Part shown: positions 46,867-59,531 of the stretch, in pieces
Layout of the letters: every line of letters begins with the position of its first letter
How positions within the stretch are numbered: the first letter of the stretch is position 1
Source of the DNA: Candidatus Poribacteria bacterium
GTDB taxonomy: Bacteria > Poribacteria > WGA-4E > WGA-3G
Assembly: GCA_028821605.1 (NCBI GenBank)
Contig: JAPPFM010000056.1
Span: 209,346-273,345, forward strand
DNA: 64,000 nucleotides
Reading direction: 5' to 3'
The notes under the pieces: model-generated
The model's database searches: none
Seen by the model: the letters and a program-made list of their open reading frames with translations, nothing else
Told to the model about the DNA's origin: nothing
Made by a program: the position numbers and the translations under genes

Positions 46867-47852
46867 CACCGTGCAGGTCCTGGACCGCTGTATTCCCTAC
46901 CGAACGCCAAACTATGGGGTTCCTCAAAGGGTCGAAACGGCACCATATCCGCGATCTCCTGAAGCCGTTCTAATACTTCCGAGGGCAATGGACCCGCTTC
47001 AACCGCACGGACATTCTGTTCAACCTCTTCCACAGATCTCGCCCCCACCAACACCGTAGAAATATCAGGATTGGATATAACCATACGGATACCTGCCTCT
47101 GGAAGCGAGAGTTCGATTTCATCCAAAAACTGATAAAGCACTTTGAACTGTCCCTGACGCGGACGGCTAAGCCACCATACCCCCGTCTCTACTTCGGCGT
47201 GGCGGCGTGACAATGCGCCTTGTTGTAAGGGAGCACCGATGACAATTCCCATATTCTGTCGTTTCGCTTCTGGGAAAATTGAGATTGCCGCTTCACGCCA
47301 GAGTAGACTATAATTCTGCGCTGCCAATACCACATCGTAGACCCCTGTTGCCATAATTGCGGGGAGTTGATGTGCAGTTGTCCCACCTAATCCTGTGAAA
47401 CGGACAATCCCTTCCGCTTTGAGTTCCGCCAACAACTCACAGACCGGTCCATCAAATGTCTCGTGGCTTGTCCACCAATCGTATTGTCCCGGACGATCCG
47501 GTTCATGCACCATCAGGATGTCAATAGTATCTCTTTTCAGCAAACGCAGACTCTCTTCAACCGATTGCCGTAGGAGTTGTTTATCCTTCGGATCGAAAGG
47601 TTGTGGTCTGCCGCCGATTTTCGTGGAGAGGTAATGCGGCTGCAACACACCCTCTAAAGCTTCCCCAACGACTTCTTCACTGTTGCCGTAACTCGGTGCG
47701 GTATCAACATAATTGACACCGAGTTCCAAAGCGCGTCGGATAGCGTTATGTCCGTCAGCGCGATTCCCACCGCCAGCCGTTGAGACAAAGAGTCCGCCCA
47801 TTCCTAAGACGCTCACTTCAAGCCCAGTCCGCCCAAGAATTCGTTTTTCCAT
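46866..47852 (-). CDS. Aldo/keto reductase
   Basis: A protein of 328 residues from the ATG at about 47852 (MEKRILGRTGLEVS is the family's usual start; an earlier TTG at 47936 would add residues read from promoter sequence). The catalytic Tyr is in DTAPSYGNSEEVVGEAL, and the Lys in LSTKIGG. NAD(P)-binding residues lie in VLVGARSVEEVEQN. The extent resembles D-threo-aldose (L-fucose) dehydrogenases, which would fit the fucose genes near by, but specificity is inferred. A degraded copy of its 5' end lies upstream. Confidence 0.82.
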   Translation of the reverse strand: MEKRILGRTGLEVSVLGMGGLFVSTAGGGNRADGHNAIRRALELGVNYVDTAPSYGNSEEVVGEALEGVLQPHYLSTKIGGRPQPFDPKDKQLLRQSVEESLRLLKRDTIDILMVHEPDRPGQYDWWTSHETFDGPVCELLAELKAEGIVRFTGLGGTTAHQLPAIMATGVYDVVLAAQNYSLLWREAAISIFPEAKRQNMGIVIGAPLQQGALSRRHAEVETGVWWLSRPRQGQFKVLYQFLDEIELSLPEAGIRMVISNPDISTVLVGARSVEEVEQNVRAVEAGPLPSEVLERLQEIADMVPFRPFEEPHSLAFGREYSGPGPAR

Positions 47853-47994
47853 GGTTATCCCTTTTGTTGATTTAGCAGAATTGGTACGTACAATGGAATA
47901 GAGTTTACAATAGATTCCACGGAAGGTCAACACCAAAATCCGTTTCTATTGCAACAAGGGGTTTCACTCCATGGCTCCTGCAACCGCGACAAGG

Positions 47995-48046
47995 TCAAGT
48001 CCGTCCGAGAATTCGTTTTTCCATAACTATTCCTTTTGTTGATTTA
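47995..48046 (-). pseudogene. Duplicated 5' end of the aldo/keto reductase gene, interrupted by a MITE-like element
   Basis: On the minus strand the copy reads MEKRILGRT and then breaks, and its leader (TAAATCAACAAAAGG) equals that of the intact gene. The copy's leader resumes at 48344-48440, where TTTGATTTAGCAAAATTGG and the following 80 bp match 47866-47950. The two parts are separated by the element at 48047-48343. Confidence 0.8.
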
Positions 48047-48343
48047 ACTTGAGTTCGATAAAAAAGGTCGGTTCTTGTAGGTTGGGTTGAACGAAGATTT
48101 ACTAAAAACGGCACAAAGCAAACAACTTCACGCGACACCCAGAAACCTGAAATTACCAAAGCGCGAGTGAAACCCAACGCATTCTCTACCAATGACGTTT
48201 GGAGTGTTGGGTTTCGCTATATCCATCTCCAAGAATAGGGCATCGAAAACTGGCACTCTCCGTGTAAGCTGAAAAATTTTCGGTCTTTTACCGCTCTACC
48301 CAACCTACATTTACACCTCAATTTTTATTATCGAACTCGCGTT
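48047..48343. mobile_element. 297-bp MITE-like non-coding element with target-site duplication
   Basis: TGATTTA occurs directly at both edges (48040-48046 and 48344-48350). The ends are inverted repeats: ACTTGAGTTCGATAA on the left and TTATCGAACTCGCGTT on the right (GAGTTCGATAA matches exactly). Inside lies a second inverted pair, GTAGGTTGGGT (48077-48087) and ACCCAACCTAC (48298-48308), and a third pair around AAACCCAAC/GTTGGGTTT (about 48171-48223). No ORF is seen, so a transposase elsewhere would be needed. Confidence 0.8.
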
Positions 48344-48467
48344 TGATTTAGCAAAATTGGCACGTATGATGGAACAGAATTTACAATAGATTCCGCCTTG
48401 CGTCAACGTCAAAAATCCTACATTCAATTAGAAACAACCCCCGCGCCCCTACCAAAAGTAAAATTTA

Positions 48468-48497
48468 TTGACACAGTCCAACCAAGTGTGCTAAATT
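48468..48497 (+). promoter_or_regulatory. Promoter of the phytanoyl dioxygenase gene at 48568
   Basis: TTGACA (48468-48473) and TAAATT (48492-48497) are 18 bp apart, with TGC before the -10. Confidence 0.5.
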
Positions 48498-48567
48498 GAT
48501 TATCAATATTTATTACCGCAATCTCACAGCTAAGTTTGAAGCCTGTAGATAATAGGAGACTGAGCGT

Positions 48568-49353
48568 ATGAGCGATCTACAGTTACAACAATACCTCTTC
48601 GACGTGCAAGGCTACCTTGTCATTGAGAATGTCTTGAGTCCAGAAGAGGTCGCAGCACTCAATCAATGTATTGACGAACAACAACTCCCTACACCGGGGA
48701 AGGTGCAAAGATTTGGAAGTGCCCCTGATGGTCCCGGTTTTCTGCAGTGGGGACAACCGTTTTGCAATTTACTCGACCATCCTGAGATTATGCCAATACT
48801 TCAATTTCGCTTAGGCGATTGCTTTCGGCTCGACCGTATTTACGGGATGTATATGCAGGAAGGAATGCCGCGCGGACATCTGCATGCCGACTATGGTGCC
48901 ACTTCTCCGACAGCAAGAGCGCAACCGGGAGAATACTACTCTTTCCGAGATAACGAGATTCATAACGGCTTCGTTGTTGTGACGTGGAACCTCGCCGACA
49001 CCGGACCGGATTATGGTGGATTTTGCTGTATTCCGGGCAGCCACAAAGGCAATTTCAAACTACCACAACAGATCGCTGAGGCACCCCAAGACGCACCTTG
49101 TGTCGTCATTCCGAATGCCCCTGCAGGTTCAGCGATTCTATTTACCGAAGCACTGACACACGGCACGGCGGCGTGGAACGGTAAGCACCAACGCAGGTCC
49201 CTTCTGTATAAGTATTGCGTTTCGCACATCGCGTGGACTTCGCGACGCGTAGCAATACCGGAAGATATAGAAATTACAGAACGTCAAAAGATTCTCTTCC
49301 GTGAACCTGCTGACCCGTATCGTCATTTCCCATCGCTATTTGAAGCAGCATAA
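48568..49353 (+). CDS. Phytanoyl-CoA dioxygenase family protein
   Basis: A 261-residue PhyH-like oxygenase. Fe ligands are in HLHADYGATS (HxD) and EALTHGTAAW (distal His), with the 2-oxoglutarate Arg in HQRRSLLYKY. It begins LQLQQYLFDVQGYLVIENVL, as do many Poribacteria-type members. It opens a + strand stretch of metabolic genes. The substrate is unknown. Confidence 0.88.
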   Translation: MSDLQLQQYLFDVQGYLVIENVLSPEEVAALNQCIDEQQLPTPGKVQRFGSAPDGPGFLQWGQPFCNLLDHPEIMPILQFRLGDCFRLDRIYGMYMQEGMPRGHLHADYGATSPTARAQPGEYYSFRDNEIHNGFVVVTWNLADTGPDYGGFCCIPGSHKGNFKLPQQIAEAPQDAPCVVIPNAPAGSAILFTEALTHGTAAWNGKHQRRSLLYKYCVSHIAWTSRRVAIPEDIEITERQKILFREPADPYRHFPSLFEAA

Positions 49354-59392: not shown

Positions 59393-59489
59393 GTTGGGTT
59401 TCACTGGGTTTTCGGAACAAAACTGACCTATTCGATTTGACATGTCTTTGAGAGGCTACATCGAATTTCTCTTTTCCGTTCAACCCAAC
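59393..59489. repeat. Short relative of the GTTGGGTT inverted-repeat element
   Basis: GTTGGGTT (59393-59400) pairs with AACCCAAC (59482-59489), the same inner motif as in the 48047-48343 element (AACCCAACCTACA at the right end). No target-site duplication is evident. Confidence 0.55.
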
Positions 59490-59531
59490 CTACAGCAATA
59501 CTGATTACACGCTTGGCGTAAAATTAAAAAG

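What the first reader, a model, noticed from the sequence alone, without database searches (positions are those of the whole stretch)
48047..48343. MITE-like element with a clear TGATTTA target-site duplication in a duplicated gene leader
The host sequence is a second copy of the aldo/keto reductase leader, so the empty site can be read from the first copy (TTGATTTAGCAGAATTGG). The insert is 297 bp, has end-inverted repeats, and has nested inner inverted pairs with GTTGGGTT cores. A shorter relative lies at 59393-59489. Since the empty site is in the same window, this gives direct proof of insertion.
Basis: seen in the sequence. Interest (0 to 1): 0.66.

Follow-up and report, generated by a model that had tools for sequence, protein, structure and literature searches.

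The report
Jumping repeat nested inside another repeat
A 296-base insert in an uncultured bacterium (Poribacteria) is a small transposable element that carries a second kind of mobile repeat inside it, so repeats belonging to two unrelated gene-jumping systems have been fused into one travelling unit.

Summary
In detail: 48047-48342 (296 bp) is an insertion flanked by an 8-bp duplication, TTGATTTA (48039-48046, 48343-48350). The empty site is readable in the diverged leader copy at 47826-47938.

"MITE-like" is right for the shell only. The element has two layers.

Outer layer: ends of consensus AACGTGAGTTTGATAA. These are the ends of an IS982-family insertion sequence, found intact (1017-1023 bp, transposase E = 8e-76) in same-genus genomes.

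Inner layer (48077-48308, 232 bp): two inverted GTAG-tagged palindromes, i.e. a large REPIN. The same palindrome flanks this genome's RAYT transposase gene and lies in 8 of 8 named Ca. Poribacteria RAYT loci.

The fusion is an old unit. Twelve of 22 two-armed composites, from several species, have exact duplications of 6 bp or more at the IS982 ends (5 of 462 in a permuted control). The "shorter relative" at 59393-59493 is a single REP without IS982 ends.

Each layer is a known kind; I found no report of the fusion in the searches made. Against a simple story: no IS982 transposase was found in this genome, and composite number follows RAYT rather than IS982.

The parts
48039..48046 (.). left target-site duplication TTGATTTA
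48047..48342 (.). whole composite element, 296 bp, no ORF of 80 aa or more overlapping it
48047..48061 (+). IS982-type left end (ACTTGAGTTCGATAA, 2 mismatches to consensus)
48328..48342 (-). IS982-type right end (ACGCGAGTTCGATAA on - strand, 2 mismatches)
48077..48308 (.). REPIN core: two GTAG-tagged long REPs in inverted orientation
48077..48178 (+). left long REP: GTAG + GTTGGGTT..AACCCAAC hairpin with a 2+2 mismatch bulge and a long loop
48206..48308 (-). right long REP (GTAGGTTGGGTAGAGCG.., changed in the stem)
48343..48350 (.). right target-site duplication TTGATTTA
47826..47938 (-). uninterrupted AKR start and leader: the paralogous empty site
   Evidence: AKR PF00248
47998..48046 (-). 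second AKR start/leader copy, proximal part (ATG plus about nine codons)
   Evidence: reading
48343..48414 (-). second leader copy, distal part beyond the insert
59393..59493 (-). single long REP of the inner family, no IS982 ends

Best explanation
A composite non-autonomous transposon. The shell is a MITE with IS982-family ends; it was inserted by an IS982-type DDE transposase acting in trans, which duplicated 8 bp of target. The cargo is a REPIN of the genome's RAYT (TnpA-REP) system: two inverted GTAG-tagged palindromes that a Y1 HUH transposase is expected to handle as single-stranded DNA. Shown: insertion with duplication; ends equal to those of IS982 copies in sister species; the same REP around the RAYT gene; the fused unit present in several species with duplications at its outer ends. 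Inferred: that the IS982 transposase moved it, that a REPIN once entered an IS982 MITE to make it, and that the RAYT recognises the inner part. It probably has no selected function at this site; it sits between the AKR stump and the PhyH gene and could act on transcription there, which is untested.
For: Ends: intact IS982 copies of 1017-1023 bp with ends AACGTGAGTTTGATAA / AACGTGAGTTTGAAAA in G005, G009, G010, G016, G017, G021; transposase NF033520 8.1e-76 and PF13612. Duplications: 12 of 22 two-armed composites with exact repeats of 6 bp or more against 5 of 462 permuted pairs; all end-pairs found, redundant pairings included, 16 of 58 against 1.2%; REPIN-free copies have them too (L045, L047, L139). 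REPIN: 212 GTAGGTTGGGTTGAAC sites with 2 or fewer mismatches, control 8; REPINs on both sides of the RAYT gene; RAYT is NF047646 6.4e-60 and matches TnpA-REP 4er8 at 3.5e-37; the REP lies in 8 of 8 Poribacteria and 22 of 22 cyanobacterial loci fetched by RAYT match, and in 4 of the other 39; exact REP counts are higher in the 7 genomes with a close RAYT than in the other 33 (p = 0.0003, not corrected for kinship). Separable layers: 5 of 9 end-paired MITEs read hold no REP; of 51 REPIN cores of this genome listed (loose rule, up to 5 mismatches), 21 have one or two IS982 arms, 10 have another end family, 20 have neither. REPIN boundary: a pyrimidine precedes GTAG in 51 of 52 flanks outside both end families (21 of 52 at position -15).
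Against: No IS982 transposase match in this genome (98% complete), so the mover is not on hand here. Composite number is not associated with intact IS982 (p = 0.59), but with RAYT (p = 0.02, uncorrected for kinship). Ten of 22 two-armed composites show no exact duplication of 6 bp or more. Beyond about 16-20 bp the composite arms are not visibly IS982 (by eye). No REPIN-free copy of the composite's own arms was found, so the order of assembly is inferred. The CT cleavage dinucleotide of other TnpA-REP was not enriched outside the arms (15 of 52 against 12 and 15 of 52). The window's two REP hairpins fold little better than shuffles (z -1.12 and -0.27).
Confidence: 0.86

Rival explanations
1. 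A plain IS982 MITE whose inner inverted repeats are just part of the MITE; the likeness to RAYT repeats is incidental.
For: Ends and duplications suffice to explain the insertion.
Against: The inner core is found 30 times without IS982 arms among 51 cores of this genome, flanks the RAYT gene, and occurs near RAYT genes of cyanobacteria that lack good IS982 ends. MITEs with the same ends have no core.
Confidence: 0.04
2. The composite is moved today mainly by the RAYT, carrying the IS982 arms along; the duplications are relics of older IS982 moves.
For: Composite number follows RAYT presence (14, 11 and 10 copies in G000, G020 and G019), not IS982. Near-identical composites (95.9-97.3%) exist in G020, where no IS982 match was found.
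Against: Copies start exactly at IS982 ends and the duplications lie there, also in G020 (TATTTCAA, TATCGTA). G003 and G006 have a RAYT and 0 and 1 composites.
Confidence: 0.09
3. Chance arrangement: duplicated leader with slipped repeats, no transposition.
For: The host is itself a duplicated, rearranged leader, and the empty site is paralogous.
Against: 46 matches dispersed in the genome, empty-site reading in register, permuted control.
Confidence: 0.01

Closest known systems
IS982-derived MITE of Cardinium (MITECca01, PMC9769881; passages seen)
   Same: Short element without transposase, ends of an IS982 parent, many copies
   Different: There the parent is intact in the same genome; no REPIN cargo is described in the passages seen
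REPIN/RAYT (Bertels and Rainey, PMC3116915; TnpA-REP, PMC8266576; passages seen)
   Same: Two inverted REPs, GTAG tag, hairpin with mismatch bulge, clusters beside the RAYT gene
   Different: Here each REP has a loop of about 70 nt, so the REPIN is about 230 bp, and it sits inside IS982 ends
TIRtrons of Di Nocera et al. (PMC3733652; passages seen)
   Same: GTAG units joined to unrelated inverted sequences, some beside RAYT genes
   Different: There the joined sequences are unrelated palindromes flanking RAYT genes; here they are IS982 ends with target duplications and dispersed copies

Membership tests
MITE of the IS982 family | Terminal inverted repeats matching a full IS of the family | tested here: met
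   window ends 2 mismatches each to the 16-nt consensus
MITE of the IS982 family | Target-site duplication of the parent's size | tested here: met
   window 8 bp; composites 6-8 bp; of 8 IS copies with both flanks, read by eye, 3 (L183, L186, L211) show 6-8 bp
MITE of the IS982 family | Short, no transposase gene, multicopy | tested here: met
MITE of the IS982 family | Parental transposase in the same genome (usual, not strict: parents can be lost or unassembled) | tested here: not met
   no match; present in sister species
REPIN of a RAYT system | Two REPs in inverted orientation, each with GTAG at its 5' foot | tested here: met
REPIN of a RAYT system | Hairpin with unpaired GTAG and a mismatch bulge | tested here: met
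   GTAG unpaired in all four folded sequences; 8-bp stem in three, 7-bp in the window's right REP; 2+2 mismatch in the left one. Energies of the window's own REPs are not clearly better than shuffles
REPIN of a RAYT system | Same REP flanks a RAYT gene | tested here: met
REPIN of a RAYT system | REP of 20-40 nt (size given in PMC3733652); a usual rather than defining size | tested here: not met
   here about 100 nt each; short REPs of 30-44 nt with the same stem exist in the genome (8 sites)
REPIN of a RAYT system | RAYT recognises and cleaves it | not testable with these tools
   indirect CT cleavage-site test inconclusive

The most novel reading that the evidence does not exclude
A doubly served mobile element: one DNA unit spread both by a DDE (IS982) transposase through its ends and by a domesticated Y1 HUH transposase (RAYT) through its core, so that it keeps amplifying in species that have lost one of the two enzymes.
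Probability: 0.22. Interest if true: 0.65.

Novelty: new variant of a known kind. Interest (0 to 1): 0.42.

Why it matters
How REPINs reach new sites is unresolved. Here REPINs ride on a classical transposon whose insertions leave a readable duplication. That gives a second, testable route for REPIN spread, with clear outer boundaries (duplication at IS982 ends) to set against the inner ones (pyrimidine-GTAG). Species in one genus differ in which of the two enzymes they keep, so the contribution of each can be compared.

Tried and rejected
Rfam: no family at E up to 1 over 47500-48900. CT-dinucleotide cleavage site: inconclusive. REPIN-free site inside the second end family (L034:1941-2300): only a partial copy, no clean empty site. 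REPIN-free copy of the composite arms: none clear. For arm A, 29 of 35 hits are followed by the REP; of the other six, L255 has a REP with a change, L141 an interrupted REP, L170 is unclear, and three look like chance; arm C 9 of 9; arm W 8 of 12, the other four at the 6-mismatch limit. Flank search for REPIN presence/absence between relatives: no clean case. IS982 in own genome: no match. Literature: eight searches, open-licence PMC only; no REPIN inside an IS982 MITE seen in the listings. Four papers were read in passages, none in full.

The quick core tree has long end branches and 37 of 75 inner forks are unsupported; it is used only to say that armed cores cluster.

Full report
WHAT IS THERE. 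The window copy is an insertion of 296 bp, 48047-48342, between two copies of TTGATTTA (48039-48046 and 48343-48350). The AKR leader copy at 47826-47938 shows the same stretch with a single TTGATTTA. No ORF of 80 aa or more overlaps the insert. The host copy of the leader also holds an ATG and about nine codons of an AKR gene, so it looks like the stump of a second AKR gene next to the intact one (PF00248; the gene on the other side is PhyH, PF05721). Of nine relatives' loci fetched, eight cover this place (L239 starts inside it) and only the first leader copy is found in them; in G008 and G006 a WD40-repeat gene (named by eye from its repeats) fills the gap that the stump and the element occupy here. 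The two leader copies are 81-88% alike while the closest relative's AKR region is 95% alike, so the empty site is paralogous and not a fresh duplicate. The reading of the duplication does not depend on that.

TWO LAYERS. Aligning the 30 best copies in the genome shows that likeness comes in two blocks. Most copies match from GTAG to CTAC (window 48077-48308); only some match out to the ends. The outer block has the inverted ends AACGTGAGTTTGATAA. With 3 or fewer mismatches this motif occurs 206 times in the genome (reversed-pattern control 32). With 1 or fewer it occurs 51 times (control 0) and is found in 23 of 23 other genomes of the genus, 5-109 times each, and in 7 of 16 genomes outside it, once or twice each. 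Nine pairs of facing ends were read in full: lengths 57 to 494 bp; five hold no REP, two hold a REPIN or most of one, two hold a REP interrupted by other sequence.

OUTER LAYER = IS982. In G005 facing ends lie 1021 bp apart and enclose a 298-residue transposase, NCBIfam IS982 at 8.1e-76, Pfam DDE_Tnp_1_3 at 1e-62. Full-length matches without stops are in G005 (6), G017 (4), G009 (2), G021 (2), G010 (1) and G016 (1) of 40 genomes searched (G000 itself was one of the 40 and had none). Their ends differ slightly, GATAA at one end and GAAAA at the other, and many composites keep that difference. Of the eight IS copies with both flanks, three (L183, L186, L211) show exact duplications of 6-8 bp by eye. 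This genome itself gave no match.

INNER LAYER = REPIN. The core holds two copies of GTAG-GTTGGGTT...AACCCAAC in inverted orientation. GTAGGTTGGGTTGAAC with 2 or fewer mismatches occurs 212 times (control 8). Eight exact copies surround the gene at L033:3385-3978, whose product is a REP-associated tyrosine transposase (NF047646, 6.4e-60; Pfam Y1_Tnp; PDB 4er8 TnpA-REP 3.5e-37). The closest named relatives are eight Candidatus Poribacteria loci (72-88%), then cyanobacteria. The REP (1 or fewer mismatches to GTAGGTTGGGTT) lies in the fetched loci of 8 of 8 Poribacteria, 22 of 22 cyanobacteria and 4 of the 39 others. Over 40 genomes, exact REP counts are higher in the 7 with a close RAYT (74% or more) than in the 33 without (p = 0.0003); kinship is not corrected for. 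The folded left REP of the window leaves GTAG unpaired below an 8-bp stem with a 2+2 mismatch; the loop is about 70 nt and the energy is not clearly better than shuffles. Short REPs with the same stem also exist (8 sites).

THE FUSION IS A UNIT. In 84 REPIN cores taken from the fetched loci (51 from this genome; a few alternative pairings of one place are among them), IS982-type arms lie outside 67 of 168 ends (reversed pattern 8 of 168). These loci were chosen for their REP or end matches, so the share is not a genome-wide frequency. Twenty-two cores have both arms; 12 of these carry exact duplications of 6 bp or more at the outer ends, against 5 of 462 when left and right flanks of different copies are paired. 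The 12 come from G000, G019, G020 and G010. The pattern end + 12-42 nt + REP occurs in 12 of 40 genomes searched, all of this genus: 14 in G000, 11 in G020, 10 in G019, fewer elsewhere; control 0. Three composites of G020 are 95.9-97.3% alike, two others 91.5-92.5% to one of them, and a pair in G000 98.1%. In a quick tree of 78 cores the armed ones cluster (18 changes against 25.8 shuffled); the window copy pairs with L002, in a part of the tree that also holds G020 composites. The arm sequences were not clearly found without the REP.

WHAT SPEAKS AGAINST A SIMPLE STORY. The genome with the most composites has no IS982 transposase match, and across the genus composite number goes with RAYT (p = 0.02), not with full IS982 copies (p = 0.59). 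Either the IS was lost or not assembled after a burst, or the RAYT contributes. The start of the REPIN is marked by a pyrimidine before GTAG in 51 of 52 flanks outside both end families (21 of 52 at position -15). That suggests a boundary of its own, but the CT cleavage dinucleotide known from other TnpA-REP (PMC8266576, passages) was not enriched there.

COMPARISON. IS982 MITEs are known (Cardinium, PMC9769881, passages). REPINs and their clusters beside RAYT genes are known (PMC3116915, passages). GTAG units joined to unrelated inverted sequences are known (PMC3733652, passages). The combination of a long-loop REPIN carried by an IS982 MITE that spreads with target duplications was not seen in the listings. 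I rate it a new variant of known kinds.

Noticed in passing
L034:2734-2980, L036, L037, L040, L041, L269: A second end family, CATAGGTGTCAATTTA, flanks the 238-248 bp REPINs on both sides, and in some beyond it lies a palindrome like GGTGCGGTT..AACCGCACC: possibly a further layer of nesting.
   Followed up: partly
L020, L027, L045, L049, L141: Several REPs are interrupted just after GTAGGT by a similar short stretch (GTGTTTTTGCTTGGGTGTTTCC..), as if another small repeat inserts at one fixed place in the REP.
   Followed up: no
L061-L073, L075-L079 (cyanobacteria) and L053-L060 (Poribacteria): RAYT proteins of the cyanobacterial loci are about 59-68% identical to this one and share the same REP stem, hinting at transfer between phyla.
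   Followed up: no
L063:3064-5627: Arthrospira RAYT gene flanked by long arrays of REPs at regular spacings (53 and 41 bp on one side, alternating pairs every 72 bp on the other).
   Followed up: no
window 47974-48440: A WD40-repeat gene present at this place in G008 and G006 is missing here; only its last bases seem to remain before the AKR stump.
   Followed up: partly
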